DNA of 16,402 nucleotides from Hamiltosporidium magnivora (lineage: Eukaryota; Microsporidia; Dubosqiidae): contig PITI01000227.1 in assembly GCA_004325065.1 (NCBI GenBank), forward strand, positions 1 through 16,402, written 5' to 3'. Numbering within the stretch: the first letter of the stretch is position 1; each line of letters opens with the position of its first letter. Positions 2,659 to 16,346 of the stretch are shown piece after piece. A model generated the notes under the pieces. It was given only the letters and a program-made list of their open reading frames with translations, ran no database searches and had not been told where the DNA came from. The translations under genes and the position numbers were made by a program.

Positions 2659-3375
2659 ATGGGAAATATTCTTTCAAGAAAAACATCAATTAGAAAAATA
2701 TTATTTACAATGGAAGAAAAGATAAAAAACACAGAAACTTATTTGAAAGGTTTGAAGCAGAAAAAAGAAACATCAAGAAAAAATTTCTATTACTCAACAA
2801 TTTACATTGGTATTCCTTTCATTGCATATATTTATATTTCAAATAAGAATTTATTTTTGAATTTATTTATATTTTTGCTTTCATTTTTCGTTTTAAGATT
2901 TATTTTATTTCAGTTTTTTGATAGAAAAATAAATTATAACGAAAAATTATTGGGAACTTTAAAAGAAACACAGAAGAAACGAATTGAGGAATTGAAAAAA
3001 GAATCTTTGTATCTTGAAACCAAGGAACTTGTAGAGAAATATGATGTAAAGGAAATAGAAAAAAGAAATATTTCACAACAAAATTTACAAAATATTACAC
3101 CGGTAAAAAATATTTGTAAGACTAAAAGAGGTATTGTAGATAAATTTGCGGATTTTATTATTGGAGAAGATCCTAGTTCAATGTATGCTCTTATATGTGA
3201 AAAATGCTTTTCACACAACGGTTTATCTCATCCTTTGGAATATAATTTAATGAAATTCCGTTGTTTTAATTGTGAGCATTTGAATGATAAAACAGTTGTT
3301 TTAAAAAATGAACCTAGAAAGGAAGAAGAAAATAAAGGAAAAAATAAGGAAAAAGACAAAGAAAATAAAGAGTAA
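2659..3375 (+). CDS. LNP1: Lunapark-family ER junction protein
   Basis: Lunapark (yeast Lnp1) stabilises three-way junctions of the tubular endoplasmic reticulum, acting with atlastin/Sey1 and reticulons. The 238-residue protein has the family layout. The N-terminus, MGNILSRK, fits an N-myristoylation signal, as in animal Lunapark. A charged helix follows (about 15-42). Two membrane segments (about 43-61 and 65-87) form a hairpin. A Lys/Glu-rich coiled-coil-like region spans about 92-138. A C-terminal zinc ribbon has Cys180-x2-Cys183 and Cys202-x2-Cys205, inside the family signature YALICEKCFSHNG...FRCFNCEHLN. The last 20 residues are a Lys/Glu tail. It is shorter than animal homologues, as is usual in microsporidia. 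The start at 2659 is supported by the adjacent C-run and the MGxxxS motif. The next gene on this strand starts 819 bp downstream. Confidence 0.92.
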   Translation: MGNILSRKTSIRKILFTMEEKIKNTETYLKGLKQKKETSRKNFYYSTIYIGIPFIAYIYISNKNLFLNLFIFLLSFFVLRFILFQFFDRKINYNEKLLGTLKETQKKRIEELKKESLYLETKELVEKYDVKEIEKRNISQQNLQNITPVKNICKTKRGIVDKFADFIIGEDPSSMYALICEKCFSHNGLSHPLEYNLMKFRCFNCEHLNDKTVVLKNEPRKEEENKGKNKEKDKENKE

Positions 3376-4194: not shown

Positions 4195-4675
4195 ATGAGT
4201 AAACATCCAGTCATTTTACGTGTTTATGATCTTTCTAAGGGACAAGCAAAAATATTATCTCTTCCTATCTTAGGTATTCAAATTGAGGGAATATGGCATA
4301 CATCAGTAGAAGTATATCAAAGAGAATATTACTTTCAGGACGGTATACTCCATGTTGAACCAGTAAGTGTTATTTTCTAATTAGGGTAAAAGTCACCATG
4401 GAGAAGCTCTTAAAACATATGATATGGGAATTACCTCCTTACCGAATGATGTTTTTCATGAATATTTAGAAATTTTATCCGAAAAGTACAATTCTTCTAC
4501 TTACGATCTTTTTAAAAATAATTGTAATCATTTTTCTAACGATGCTACAATGTTTTTGTTGTCTAAATCTATTCCTACTGAAATATTAGATTTGCCAGAA
4601 ATTGTAATGAAGTCACCAATGTATGAAACTCTTATCAACATGCTTAGATCCGATTTTCAAAGTGGTAGTAAATAA
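4195..4675 (+). CDS. DeSI/PPPDE-family cysteine isopeptidase, two exons (4195-4362, 4385-4675)
   Basis: PPPDE proteins, including the DeSI desumoylating isopeptidases, are papain-fold cysteine proteases that remove SUMO or ubiquitin from targets. Exon 1 (56 codons) encodes the family start VILRVYDLSKG and GIWHTSVEVY with catalytic His35. Exon 2 (96 codons) encodes YDLFKNNCNHFS with catalytic Cys103, followed by the IPTEIL.LP segment. Removing the 22-nt intron joins the halves in frame, giving 152 residues, close to the ~168 of animal DeSI-1 with a similar His-Cys spacing. The joined Pro-Gly at the splice point falls where the family has a conserved PG. Without splicing, translation would stop at 4378-4380, before the catalytic Cys. 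The substrate in this organism is unknown, and a deubiquitinase role is possible. The ATG is chosen from the adjacent CCC; a longer frame to 4123 has only a TTG. Confidence 0.9.
4363..4384 (+). other. 22-nt spliceosomal intron
   Basis: The sequence is GTAAGT-GTTATTTT-CTAATTAG. It has the strict GTAAGT donor and a branch-point-like CTAAT fused to the acceptor TAG, which is the microsporidian intron pattern. It lies after codon 56 (phase 0), contains an in-frame TAA, and its removal restores a continuous PPPDE domain. Because 22 is not a multiple of three, retention also shifts the frame. Confidence 0.88.
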
Positions 4676-4844: not shown

Positions 4845-5063
4845 TGAAGGGAGGATAGCCACATTAAAAACTTTCTGCTTGGTAATGAATATGTACAATT
4901 CATATTAAAATCATTGCTGCCATTGTGGTGAAATGTTAAACACGCTTCCTCTTTAGGCTAATCCTCTATAATCCGAAGTTACAACTGATAAAAAAAAACG
5001 GAAAGCATTCATTTGTTCATTCACGACACTAAAAGGTAAAAGAAGAACGAATATGTAAGTAAG
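4845..5063 (+). repeat. Monomer-tail repeat ending in TAAGTAAG
   Basis: One ~104-bp monomer (about 4845-4945: GGATAGCCACATTAAAAAC, then TCTGCTTGGTAATGAATATG and AAAATCATTG) is followed by a tail of about 115 bp that ends ATATGTAAGTAAG at 5063. The second half matches 7588-7706 (AGGC.AATC.CTAT, AA.AGATAAAA, AAAGGTAAA.GA.GAA..AA). A terminal tetranucleotide repeat is typical of the 3' end of some non-LTR retroelements and their SINE-like partners. It directly abuts the truncated reverse transcriptase at 5064. Confidence 0.7.
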
Positions 5064-5560
5064 TTTTATTTAAAGTCATTCCAAAAAGACTTACGATTTT
5101 CTCGTGAATATGCAATTCTGGTAATGTTTCATAAAAAGCTTTCTGATTCACGTTATCATATGCTTTTTTAAAGTCAATAATAAGCTGATGAATAGGCTGA
5201 TTGTAATCGTAGAATTTTTCAAGAAGCATTTTGCCGTAAATATCTTGTCGATTGTTGATCTTCCTTTTCTAAAGCCAGATTGTCTTTCCCAGGATTACTT
5301 TCTAGGTATAGTTCAAAACGTTTTGCTATAACTTTGAGCGGTACTTTATAAGTGAAATATAGGAGTGATGTTCACCTTTAATTTAGGCAGAGTAATTAAG
5401 ATATATTGTGAATTGGCACAATAAGAGCCATAAATCAATATTAAGGCATGTATTCGTATTTCTAAACTTTAAGATTTTAGAAAAAATTTCTTTCAAAAGC
5501 GACTTTCCTTGATACTTTAATATCTCGAGATTTTTGCTGTTATCATCATGAGTTTTCTAG
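5064..5560 (-). pseudogene. Reverse transcriptase domain fragment, frameshifted and truncated
   Basis: Blocks in order on the minus strand, in three frames: EILKYQGKSLLKEIFSKIL (about 5530-5475), YKVPLKVIAKRFELYLES (about 5350-5300), QSGFRKGRSTIDKIFTAK (about 5282-5230), then LIIDFKKAYDNVN (about 5180-5140) and the MTL block at about 5080. These are the finger and palm blocks of non-LTR reverse transcriptases. LIIDF keeps the first catalytic Asp of motif A. The last part is an open stretch from 5229 to the junction; its apparent stop at 5029 lies inside the neighbouring repeat, so its last residues are not RT. Everything after motif A and the following helix is missing. Confidence 0.87.
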
Positions 5561-11007: not shown

Positions 11008-13332
11008 ATGATACAAGATATGGTTTTAAAAGTCAAACATCGAATTTTATATAATAATCTTAAGATGTTGGTTTTAAGTCTGGCTATCAAAAGGATATTT
11101 ACAAACGAAACAATTGCTATACATTTCTATAAAGATTATGAGAGTAATTTTACAGATGATGATTTGAATAGTTGTATTTATAAATATAAATGTCTAGAAT
11201 TTATACCGGAACATGCCATAGAGACTAAGTCTAACATAAATATTGTATATTTAAAGACATTTATAATTGATCGGAGTATTTTCTTTTTAGAGTTTTTGAC
11301 TGAGGAGAATGTGCAAGATGGCCAACAAAATAACATACACATTAATGTGAATGATTTAAATTATGATGATTTTTCATATTTTTATAATTTAGTAATAAGT
11401 TTTCCATGCTTTGTTGATTACATGAACGAATATAAATACAGGCTAATTTTTAGAATAATAGATATTTTTAAGATTCAATACAACAAACCATTGAAAGATT
11501 TTATTCGGTTAATATTGGCTTCAGTTGTATTGAATACAGAAGTAATAAAGCTATGGTATTTTTCAGTCCTAAAGTCAAATAAACATATAGTTTCTATTGC
11601 CCTGTCGAATATCGCATTTGTGGAATTGCTTGGATTATACGGAATATCTAAAGCAATATTAAACCAAATTAAAGCTGTTTATAAAGCTGTTATAACGACA
11701 GAATGTAATAATTTTGGTTTTGCAGATTTAAATGAGAATTTCTTCTATCTTGATACTTGTATTCTACAGAAAATTCTTAAAATACACAAACAGGCAAAGT
11801 ATTTTCTGAAAACCTTGAATATATTTTTCTCTCTTCACGTATATAAACGTTTTTTCCTATTTATTATGTCGTATACTGAGGAATACAAATGCTTCTTTAA
11901 TTTGTCATTATTTAAAAATTTGGAAGAGTTATTTATGTTCAAATGTTTAAACACGAAAGTTTTTATTGCAAATATAATTAAGACTATGCATTTACAAAGT
12001 ATAAAAATATTGACCGTTTTCAAATCAAATTTAATATCCGAAGATGAAATTGTATGGTTGAAAGAACTAAATTTCGAAGAATTGAATTATATTGTTACAA
12101 AATATGATTCAAAAACTTATTTTAGTATTTCGGAATTTAAATCACCTGTTTGTATAATTTTTAGTAAAATTATTGATGCAATATTTAACAACGAAAATAA
12201 ATCCAGTTTTTATGCACGTGGTACCAATATTTCGTGCTATGATCAGGACAATGAATTTGTTTTTACATTCTATCAAGATCAAAATAGAGTGAAAGATCTA
12301 ATGAACCACGGAATCGCATGTCAAATATCTTTTCGTATAAAATTATGTAATATGTTTATAAATGTTATATTTGATATTATAAATTTTAAAAGATTAAGAA
12401 ATATAGAGATAGAATTTACATATACTTGCATTAGAGATTTTAGCATATATAGCTCTGAAATTCTTAATAATATAGTTACCATGCGAATCATTAGTTCTAC
12501 AGTAAATGATATTTTTTTGTCAAAAATTCTATTATTTCCAGCACTAAAAAATATTGTATTTTATGCCTGTACCATTATGTTTTTAAATAATGACATAATC
12601 CTTAGTGAAAACACAAACATCGAATATTTGAACATAGCTGACTCTTTGATTAATAATGTGAATTATTTTATTGATTTACTGAATAAAATGGTTGGGTTAA
12701 AATCCTTAGAAATATTTAATATGACTAAAAATTCGAATCCTTTGGAAAAAAATTCAGACAATATAAATCTATGTCTTCTTAAACTAACATATTTAAGATA
12801 TTCGAGTTCGTATTATTCATATAATAATGCTCTATTTTTTCCTTTTCTTCCAAGTCTTCTAAAGTTTAATCTTGGTTCAAATCATCCAGCAGGTACTCTT
12901 CACAAAATATTTTTCAACGGAAATTTTTATATGTTAAGAAAATTAGTCTTTTATGGAATAAAAATTGGTCAAGAAGATGAACTAGCTTTACAAAAACTTA
13001 CAAATCTTCATTCTTTAACTATTGGTAAAAATTCTGAATTTTCTAATATAAATTTTTCTCAAATGTTTCACACGGCCTATACATATTCCCTAACAGAATT
13101 AATACTTCCAAATATAGAAATTACTTATTTCGATCTAAAATTTATTTCAAAACTAAAAAATCTTAAAAAATTATATATTTATAGTTTCATTCTTCGAACC
13201 AACATAATATTTTTTCTTAAAATAATTTCATCAATCACAGAAATCGAAATTGAAAAAATATTTGTTTTAAAAAATCATATTATTGAGGAGTGTGGAATAA
13301 GACTCAAGATATCTGCGTGGCATCAAAATTAA
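11008..13332 (+). CDS. Leucine-rich-repeat protein (774 aa)
   Basis: This is a single long ORF rich in Leu, Ile, Asn, Phe, Tyr and Lys. Irregular leucine-rich repeats are visible from about residue 300 (LEELFMFKCLNTK) and more clearly from about 460 to the C-terminus: LRNIEIEF, LKNIVFYAC, IEYLNIADS, LKSLEIFNM, LLKFNLGSN, LRKLVFYGI, LHSLTIGKN, LTELILPNI and LKKLYIYSF. They are spaced roughly 22-30 residues apart. The N-terminal ~300 residues match nothing I recognise. There is no convincing signal peptide or catalytic motif. The start is constrained by an in-frame TAA directly before the ATG (11005-11007), although a later Met (residue 5 or 20) could be used. LRR proteins form large, poorly conserved families in some microsporidia, and their role is unknown, possibly in protein binding or host contact. 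It lies between two inverted copies of the body repeat. Confidence 0.82.
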   Translation: MIQDMVLKVKHRILYNNLKMLVLSLAIKRIFTNETIAIHFYKDYESNFTDDDLNSCIYKYKCLEFIPEHAIETKSNINIVYLKTFIIDRSIFFLEFLTEENVQDGQQNNIHINVNDLNYDDFSYFYNLVISFPCFVDYMNEYKYRLIFRIIDIFKIQYNKPLKDFIRLILASVVLNTEVIKLWYFSVLKSNKHIVSIALSNIAFVELLGLYGISKAILNQIKAVYKAVITTECNNFGFADLNENFFYLDTCILQKILKIHKQAKYFLKTLNIFFSLHVYKRFFLFIMSYTEEYKCFFNLSLFKNLEELFMFKCLNTKVFIANIIKTMHLQSIKILTVFKSNLISEDEIVWLKELNFEELNYIVTKYDSKTYFSISEFKSPVCIIFSKIIDAIFNNENKSSFYARGTNISCYDQDNEFVFTFYQDQNRVKDLMNHGIACQISFRIKLCNMFINVIFDIINFKRLRNIEIEFTYTCIRDFSIYSSEILNNIVTMRIISSTVNDIFLSKILLFPALKNIVFYACTIMFLNNDIILSENTNIEYLNIADSLINNVNYFIDLLNKMVGLKSLEIFNMTKNSNPLEKNSDNINLCLLKLTYLRYSSSYYSYNNALFFPFLPSLLKFNLGSNHPAGTLHKIFFNGNFYMLRKLVFYGIKIGQEDELALQKLTNLHSLTIGKNSEFSNINFSQMFHTAYTYSLTELILPNIEITYFDLKFISKLKNLKKLYIYSFILRTNIIFFLKIISSITEIEIEKIFVLKNHIIEECGIRLKISAWHQN

Positions 13333-15173: not shown

Positions 15174-16346
15174 CTATTTATTTAATTGAGAAATATACTG
15201 ATTCATAAGATTTATTTGCTCCAAATAATGAGAATTAAATTCTTCATTACTTTCTTTAACAAACAATAATAGGGACCTACCTACATGATCCAAAGTACCG
15301 GAAATACCGCCATTTAATATCATTTTTCTAAGTCTCTCTTCAATAAAAGCAGGTTCAAATCCCATTTGATCTGCAATATAATCAATAGAAATATTCGAAT
15401 AAGGTTCTACAATTTTTAAAATGTTAGCTTCCAGCAACAAATCATACAGAAAATACAAATGTGAAATTAAAAAAGTGTCTGAACTCATCAACTCTCCTTT
15501 CGTATTCAAAACATCGGTATAATCTTTTAAATTCCTTTCTGAACAAGCTTTATTAATCTTTAAAAGAAGTAAAATAATTTCATCTGCCACAAAATAGGAA
15601 ACTTGTTTAAGTTTTAAAACAGATTCAATTTCATTCCATTTTTTATCAATTATTTTACACAGAATCATATATCTGACCACAAAAATTGCATCTTCAAATG
15701 ATTTCCCCTGCCAAAAACCTTCCAAAGCCTCAATAAAATAAGAATATGCATTTGAATAACTTCTTTCATCACACAAATATATTCCTGACAACATGTCGAT
15801 ATGTGCTTGTAAAACAGGGGAAACATAGGTATTTACAGCAAGTGCTTTTGCAGAAGTAAGCGAAGATCTTGCTTTAGATAGATTCTTCTGTTCATAAAAT
15901 GCTTTACTCTCATATACATATAAACATATCAAACCAGCTTTATCGTCGTGTTTTTTTAATTCTTTTAATATCGGTGAAATACATTCTAAACATTTACTGT
16001 ATTCCTTTAAAGACAATAAAGATTCGATTCTTTTAATTTCTAAATCTAAAAATAATGTTTTTTTATTTTCTATTTTGCTCCATTCAACCAACTTTTCCAA
16101 TAAATTGTAGCGAGGAAGAAAATATTCTTGCTTTGATGGAAAATAATTCAAAACATTCTTAATTATTTTTGTGTATCGTGCTATGGAAATATCAGACCAA
16201 TAAGTTTTTATTGTGACCAAGAAAGTTCCAAGATCGTCGTATAGCTTTTTTTCAAGTAAGGTGTTTGAAATAGTAAGTGCTGCTTCTTCTTTTTCATCTG
16301 TTGGATGTGTTTTTGATTTTAAGATATTTTTCAATTCATTTAGCAT
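15174..16346 (-). CDS. RPN6: 26S proteasome lid subunit Rpn6 (PSMD11)
   Basis: Rpn6 clamps the 19S lid to the 20S core and is essential for degradation of ubiquitinated proteins. The 390-residue protein aligns with the family throughout. N-terminal helical repeats cover about 1-200, with strong matches at KELKKHDDKAGL (129-139), NLSKARSSLTSAKALA (155-170) and LQAHIDMLSGI (179-189). A PCI domain follows (about 200-365), starting AYSYFIEALEG. The winged-helix part has IVEPYSNISIDYIADQMGF (312-330) and RLRKMILNGGISGTLDH (338-354), matching the family's IEPfSrv...KLSQMILD..f.GiLDqG. The C-terminal helix is present. It is about 30-45 residues shorter than yeast and animal versions, mainly at the N-terminus. 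The start at 16346 has CCCC five bases upstream. No neighbour shares its strand in the window. Confidence 0.96.
   Translation of the reverse strand: MLNELKNILKSKTHPTDEKEEAALTISNTLLEKKLYDDLGTFLVTIKTYWSDISIARYTKIIKNVLNYFPSKQEYFLPRYNLLEKLVEWSKIENKKTLFLDLEIKRIESLLSLKEYSKCLECISPILKELKKHDDKAGLICLYVYESKAFYEQKNLSKARSSLTSAKALAVNTYVSPVLQAHIDMLSGIYLCDERSYSNAYSYFIEALEGFWQGKSFEDAIFVVRYMILCKIIDKKWNEIESVLKLKQVSYFVADEIILLLLKINKACSERNLKDYTDVLNTKGELMSSDTFLISHLYFLYDLLLEANILKIVEPYSNISIDYIADQMGFEPAFIEERLRKMILNGGISGTLDHVGRSLLLFVKESNEEFNSHYLEQINLMNQYISQLNK

What the first reader, a model, noticed from the sequence alone, without database searches (positions are those of the whole stretch)
4363..4384. A 22-nt intron splits a DeSI/PPPDE isopeptidase gene between its two catalytic residues
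Two separate ORFs become one complete PPPDE domain when GTAAGT...CTAATTAG is removed. Microsporidian introns are few and mostly lie in ribosomal protein genes. One of only 22 nt in a peptidase gene, with branch point and acceptor overlapping, is near the lower size limit for any spliceosomal intron. Retention would remove the catalytic Cys, so splicing efficiency could switch the enzyme on and off.
Basis: partly seen in the sequence, partly recalled or inferred. Interest (0 to 1): 0.75.

Follow-up and report, generated by a model that had tools for sequence, protein, structure and literature searches.

The report
Tiny 22-base intron in microsporidian isopeptidase
A parasite of water fleas carries what looks like a genuine 22-base intron inside a protein-clipping enzyme gene, one of a small set of 20 to 23-base introns; tiny introns are already known in this group, but the deposited protein seems to misread this one.

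Summary
Removing 4363-4384 joins two ORFs into a complete 152-aa DeSI/PPPDE protein. Of 11 in-frame GT...AG excisions scored, the 22-nt one fits homologues best. The organism is a Hamiltosporidium (Daphnia microsporidian). The deposited H. tvaerminnensis protein instead matches a 37-nt intron that deletes conserved GKSHHGE.

It is not alone. In the 10.74 Mb held, GTAAG...CTAAYTAG of 17-25 nt occurs 11 times against 1 reversed control; in 8 of 11, excision joins a broken frame, against 0 of 10 near-miss sites and 2.2% of random excisions. Two further genes are conserved: cytochrome b5 (21 nt) and ceramide synthase (22 nt). A hydrophobic protein family has introns of 20-23 nt, three members at one site.

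The kind is known: E. cuniculi introns start at 22 nt, and H. tvaerminnensis has 17 Iso-Seq-confirmed introns, mean 28 nt, 7.5-92.3% spliced. New here: this member, possible 20-21-nt introns, and 2 of 3 checked deposited models apparently wrong. The on/off switch is possible but unsupported. No RNA was examined.

The parts
4195..4362 (+). Exon 1 of the DeSI-1-like gene (56 codons, ends ...HVEP), holds His35 (4297-4299)
   Evidence: joined frame
4363..4384 (+). 22-nt phase-0 intron GTAAGTGTTATTTTCTAATTAG
   Evidence: best of 11 in-frame GT..AG excisions scored by homologue HMM
4363..4368 (+). 5' splice site GTAAGT
   Evidence: shared by 9 of the 10 accepted introns, the tenth is GTAAGC
4377..4381 (+). 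Branch-point motif CTAAT; inferred branch A at 4380, intron position 18, 4 nt before the intron end
   Evidence: resembles the E. cuniculi CTAAYTT branch motif (passages of PMC2483917); branch A inferred, not mapped
4378..4380 (+). In-frame TAA met on intron retention (61-aa product without the Cys)
4382..4384 (+). 3' splice site TAG, directly after CTAAT
4385..4675 (+). Exon 2 (GKSHHGE... to stop TAA 4673-4675), holds Cys103 (4523-4525)
4367..4403 (+). 37-nt stretch whose removal reproduces the deposited H. tvaerminnensis protein P0001 (bar S89T); judged a wrong model
   Evidence: scores 212.7 vs 235.4 bits

Best explanation
Window 4363-4384 is a 22-nt phase-0 spliceosomal (U2-type) intron in a Hamiltosporidium DeSI-1-like (Peptidase_C97) gene. 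GTAAGT is the donor, CTAAT the branch site and the adjoining TAG the acceptor, so branching and 3' cleavage take place within one 8-nt block. Splicing gives the 152-aa enzyme with both catalytic residues; unspliced transcripts stop inside the intron and give a 61-aa piece that should be inactive. It belongs to a small set of 20-23-nt introns of the same build in this genome. Shown: sequence, frame joining, homologue fit, recurrence. Inferred: actual splicing, branch A, loss of activity on retention.
For: Exact GT...AG with joined Pfam domain. The 22-nt excision scores best of 11 in-frame GT..AG choices against an HMM of 14 homologues. All 15 homologue rows of A1 other than P0001 run through the junction with no residue missing, and 13 of 15 have G as the first residue after it. 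Recurrence: 11 vs 1 control; 8 of 11 join frames vs 0 of 10 for sites lacking the C before TAAYTAG, random rate 2.2%. Two more conserved genes join across such introns: cytochrome b5 (PF00173, E 4.9e-18) and TLC/ceramide synthase (PF03798, E 1.6e-40). The deposited H. magnivora TLC protein matches exact removal of its 22 nt, with 2 substitutions. Three paralogues share an intron column and phase though the introns are 20, 20 and 23 nt. Splicing of introns averaging 28 nt is reported for H. tvaerminnensis (passages of PMC10542269).
Against: No transcript was available. Short motif-bearing introns are often not spliced in relatives: splicing was seen for 2 of 8 candidates in Spraguea lophii, the unspliced ones being the short ones beside the start codon, and at the motif for 1 gene of 85 predicted introns in Trachipleistophora hominis. 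The deposited H. tvaerminnensis protein does not use this junction. 3 of 11 motif hits do not join frames, and the related CTAAYNYAG class is not above its control (7 vs 9; 2 of 7 join). U2, U6 and two Prp8 domains were not found in the held genome; this is uninformative, since the 14 control genomes were silent too and the held 10.74 Mb is about half of the 21.64 Mb H. tvaerminnensis assembly. The cut-offs of the joining test were set after I had seen the sites.
Confidence: 0.91

Rival explanations
1. The gene is spliced at the junction implied by the deposited protein (37 nt, 4367-4403), giving the 147-aa product.
For: Removing 4367-4403 reproduces P0001 except S89T, and the stretch is GT...AG.
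Against: It deletes GKSHHGE, a stretch with no residue missing in the 15 other homologues of A1, scores 22.7 bits lower and has donor GTGTTA. The deposited cytochrome b5 protein looks like the same kind of error: it fits a 51-nt intron that drops VYQIDDFLSK.
Confidence: 0.04
2. The 22 nt are a disabling insertion or assembly error, or the intron is no longer spliced, and the gene makes no enzyme.
For: The unspliced frame is broken; short introns in relatives are often retained; one member of the hydrophobic family (L001) has further in-frame stops downstream.
Against: Both exons are intact and conserved; a random insertion would not carry donor, branch motif and acceptor at exact boundaries; the same build recurs in 9 other places that join frames; the deposited protein, which differs from the window by S89T, has the Val expected from GTA of the donor.
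Confidence: 0.05
3. The intron is a regulated switch: controlled retention sets DeSI activity during the life cycle.
For: Retention stops translation before the Cys; splicing efficiency varies 7.5-92.3% among 17 H. tvaerminnensis introns.
Against: Low and variable efficiency is reported widely in Microsporidia; 10 of 10 accepted introns end the frame within 19 codons when retained, so nothing is special to DeSI.
Confidence: 0.08

Closest known systems
Encephalitozoon cuniculi introns (passages of PMC3629993, PMC2483917)
   Same: Few, 22-76 nt, GT-AG, strict donor and CTAAY branch motif, inefficient splicing, stops or frameshifts on retention
   Different: Here the motif is CTAATTAG in 8 of 10 (CTAATTTAG in 2), whereas 13 E. 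cuniculi introns had TAAYTT; six members of 20-21 nt lie below that species' reported range; the ones here lie inside genes, while many microsporidian introns lie at the 5' ends of ribosomal protein genes
Hamiltosporidium tvaerminnensis Iso-Seq introns (passages of PMC10542269)
   Same: Same genus; 98 predicted, 17 Iso-Seq-confirmed, mean 28 nt, variable splicing
Stentor 15-16 nt and Mikrocytos mackini 16-17 nt introns (passages of PMC9505925, PMC10245619)
   Same: Ultra-short spliceosomal introns; in Stentor the branch A is at position 10 of 15
   Different: Those genomes have 8806 and 224 introns at a nearly fixed length; here 10 were found in about half a genome, 20-23 nt
DeSI-1 / PPPDE peptidase (3ebq_A, 2wp7_A; PF05903)
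   Same: Full-length alignment with the WHTS His and NCN Cys blocks
   Different: Interrupted by a tiny intron; activity untested

Membership tests
Spliceosomal (U2-type) intron | GT...AG ends with donor and branch consensus | tested here: met
   GTAAGT, CTAAT, TAG
Spliceosomal (U2-type) intron | Excision restores a conserved reading frame | tested here: met
Spliceosomal (U2-type) intron | Removed from RNA | not testable with these tools
   no reads held
Spliceosomal (U2-type) intron | Spliceosome encoded in the genome | tested here: inconclusive
   U2, U6, PF10596, PF08083 not found; controls silent; about half the genome missing. Splicing in the genus is reported
Microsporidian short-intron class | Strict donor with branch motif within a few nt of the acceptor, recurrent in the genome | tested here: met
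   11 vs 1 control, 8 of 11 join frames; two more with CTAATTTAG
DeSI/PPPDE (Peptidase_C97) | Full domain over the family cut-off | tested here: met
   145.1 bits, cut-off 29.2, profile 1-150/151
DeSI/PPPDE (Peptidase_C97) | Catalytic His and Cys present | tested here: met
   H35 and C103 invariant in A1 and aligned to 3ebq_A; catalytic role recalled
DeSI/PPPDE (Peptidase_C97) | Desumoylating activity | not testable with these tools
   needs an assay

The most novel reading that the evidence does not exclude
Hamiltosporidium runs a splicing system tuned to 20-23-nt introns whose branch site and acceptor form one fixed block, including the shortest introns of any microsporidian, and graded retention of these introns acts as a common off-switch for a group of membrane, lipid and SUMO-related genes.
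Probability: 0.1. Interest if true: 0.65.

Novelty: new member of a known kind. Interest (0 to 1): 0.36.

Why it matters
It corrects a deposited gene product and points to a cause of wrong models in Hamiltosporidium: introns of 20-23 nt that the deposited models handle inconsistently (2 of 3 proteins checked here lose conserved residues). It gives a simple motif, GTAAG N(7-9) then CTAATTAG or CTAATTTAG, that can be tested on the Iso-Seq reads behind PMC10542269. If the 20-21-nt members are spliced, they lie below the 22-nt minimum reported for E. cuniculi.

Tried and rejected
Spliceosome parts: U2, U6, Prp8 U6-binding and PROCN domains were not found; dropped as evidence because the controls were silent and about half the genome is missing. 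Rfam at gathering thresholds on 146 kb (13 of the 20 ten-kb loci plus the window) gave nothing.

Other candidates: two 29-30-nt matches (L007, L008) do not join frames. In 216 kb (20 ten-kb loci plus the window) three looser motifs, introns up to about 75 nt and both frames at least 40 codons, found only the DeSI site, plus a 16-nt alternative inside it (4369-4384) that homologues disfavour. The 18-, 19- and 20-nt candidates L035, L037 and L038 are not accepted: L037 joins only 23+45 codons, the other two nothing of use. L050 (22 nt, CTAATTTAG) is undecided, 24+32 codons. L002 (34+41 codons) is accepted by the test but is the weakest.

Three papers were not held (PMC6349667, PMC3809491, PMC6944219).

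Default BLASTP of L004 against L006 and of L004 against L005 showed no significant similarity; without low-complexity and composition correction it is weak but present, so family membership of L004 and L005 is less sure than that of L001, L006 and L051.

Full report
What is there. The 22 nt at 4363-4384 read GTAAGTGTTATTTTCTAATTAG. Without them, 4195-4362 and 4385-4675 form one 152-codon frame. Each half alone matches PF05903 (profile 1-63 and 77-150); together they match profile 1-150 with 145.1 bits. The PPPDE1 structure 3ebq aligns over residues 4-143, E 2e-30.

Organism. The nearest deposited protein is from Hamiltosporidium tvaerminnensis (P0001, E 1.8e-87), a microsporidian of Daphnia. 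The nearest cytochrome b5 and TLC proteins are named H. magnivora. The species of the window is not settled. The held genome is 10.74 Mb in 644 contigs, against 21.64 Mb for the near-chromosome-level H. tvaerminnensis assembly, so absences mean little.

Exact boundaries. P0001 is 147 aa and lacks GKSHHGE. A search over excisions of the window shows that removing the 37 nt 4367-4403 gives P0001 apart from S89T. I aligned 16 of the 31 hits with the query (A1). In the 15 rows other than P0001 no residue of that stretch is missing, and 13 of 15 have Gly right after the junction. I then scored in-frame, stop-free GT..AG excisions of at least 10 nt with donors in 4301-4420 and acceptors up to 4469; 11 were reported. 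Against an HMM of 14 homologues (P0001 and P0002 left out) the 22-nt excision scores 235.4 bits, a 16-nt one starting at 4369 scores 228.1, a 31-nt one 222.1, the 37-nt one 212.7, and the retained 61-aa product 89.1.

Recurrence in the genome. The short lengths carry the signal: GTAAGT N(0-14) CTAATTAG has 8 against 1, and with CTAACTAG 1 against 0. GTAAGN N(3-11) CTAAYTAG has 11 against 1, all 18-22 nt long. Dropping the C gives 19 against 18, and 9 of the 19 are among the 11. GTAAGT N(0-24) CTAAYNYAG has 7 against 9 and so is not enriched. I tested every site for whether excision joins two frames of at least 30 codons while the unspliced frame ends within 20 codons: 8 of 11 with CTAAYTAG, 0 of 10 without the C, 2 of 7 with CTAAYNYAG, against 2.2% of 200,000 random excisions drawn from 216 kb of the same genome. 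The cut-offs were set after I had looked at the sites; with stricter ones (34 codons, 8 codons) the random rate was 0.85%. Two longer hits (L007, L008) do not join. In all, 10 of 30 distinct sites are accepted as introns. The near-miss class behaves like background, so the C of CTAAY matters, as expected of a branch site.

Genes carrying them. DeSI (22 nt); a cytochrome b5 protein (L036, 21 nt, PF00173 E 4.9e-18); a TLC/ceramide synthase (L039, 22 nt with donor GTAAGC, PF03798 E 1.6e-40); a family of hydrophobic, probably multi-membrane proteins (my reading of the sequences; no membrane prediction was run): L006 and L001 (20 nt each), L051 (23 nt), L005 (23 and 21 nt), L004 (21 nt); and a 75-codon frame in L002 (20 nt), the weakest. 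In Pfam L006 and L004 have no hit, part of L005 and L002 have only hits under the cut-offs; L001 and L051 were not scanned. The deposited H. magnivora TLC protein fits removal of exactly these 22 nt with 2 substitutions, and 8 other TLC homologues align through the junction. The deposited H. magnivora cytochrome b5 protein fits a 51-nt intron that drops VYQIDDFLSK, a stretch present as VYDVTNFLNE in its only other hit. So of three deposited proteins checked, one fits the tiny intron and two do not.

Shared positions. In an alignment of the hydrophobic family, the introns of L006, L001 and L051 fall in the same column in the same phase (0), although they are 20, 20 and 23 nt long. L005's first intron is 4 columns away in phase 1, and L004's intron and L005's second are 5 columns apart, both in phase 2; at about 20% identity these may or may not be the same sites. 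L001 has an in-frame stop 34 codons into its second exon and more beyond, and may be a decayed copy. The similarity of L004 and L005 to the others is weak.

How it works. Most likely a reduced spliceosome recognises GTAAGT and CTAAT; the branch A (4380) attacks the donor 17 nt upstream, and the adjoining TAG serves as acceptor. Across the 10 introns the branch A lies at intron position 16-18 and 4 or 5 nt before the end, a narrow geometry. On retention 10 of 10 meet a stop within 19 codons; in 7 of 10 it lies inside the intron, and in DeSI it is the TAA of the branch motif itself. Shown: sequence, joining, recurrence. Inferred: splicing itself, branch A, loss of activity on retention.

What is known. 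From passages only: E. cuniculi introns are 22-76 nt with strict motifs, and 30 of 37 had under 50% of transcripts spliced (PMC3629993). H. tvaerminnensis has 98 predicted and 17 Iso-Seq-confirmed introns, mean 28 nt, 7.5-92.3% spliced (PMC10542269). No introns were identified in E. aedis; V. culicis has 27 spliced genes, median efficiency 25.3% (PMC4435813). In S. lophii splicing was seen for 2 of 8 candidates, the longer ones (PMC3749934); in T. hominis for one gene of 85 predicted introns at the motif (PMC4654818). These speak for caution: a 22-nt intron may be spliced poorly. The T. hominis search expression, GTA[AG]GT...TAATT N(0-4) AG, would itself match this intron (PMC3486916). Stentor (15-16 nt, PMC9505925) and Mikrocytos (16-17 nt, PMC10245619) have shorter ones. 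Of the papers listed by my searches I opened passages of nine; of the eight that hold both Hamiltosporidium and intron I opened only PMC10542269. Supplements could not be looked up, so I cannot say that the DeSI intron is unreported.

Verdict. A real-looking, ordinary-mechanism, ultra-short microsporidian intron: new member of a known kind. The parts worth a specialist's time are the misread gene products, the possible 20-21-nt members, and the shared sites in a fast-changing family. The enzyme-switch idea is untested.

Noticed in passing
L001, L004, L005, L006, L051 (contigs C66, C271, C305, C414, C567): A fast-evolving hydrophobic protein family carries 20-23-nt introns, three members at the same site and phase; L005 has two. 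L001 has in-frame stops in its second exon.
   Followed up: partly
L036:344-757: Cytochrome b5 gene with a 21-nt intron right before HPGG; the deposited H. magnivora protein P0041 fits a 51-nt intron that loses VYQIDDFLSK.
   Followed up: yes
L039:1-804: TLC/ceramide synthase gene (5' end outside the fetched piece) with a 22-nt intron, donor GTAAGC; the deposited H. magnivora protein fits exactly this intron.
   Followed up: yes
window 2659-3375 +: Lunapark-type zinc-ribbon gene (PF10058, E 1.2e-18), an upstream neighbour of DeSI on the same strand.
   Followed up: no
window 11008-13332 +: 774-aa frame with weak leucine-rich-repeat matches (E about 0.02, under cut-off), perhaps one of the microsporidian LRR families.
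   Followed up: no
window 15174-16346 -: PCI-domain protein (E 5e-13) with an RPN6_N match (E 3.1e-6), likely proteasome lid subunit Rpn6.
   Followed up: no
window 5029-5229 -; repeats between 277 and 14830: Weak reverse-transcriptase fragment (PF00078, E 0.021, under cut-off) and diverged dispersed direct and inverted repeats (72-88% alike).
   Followed up: no
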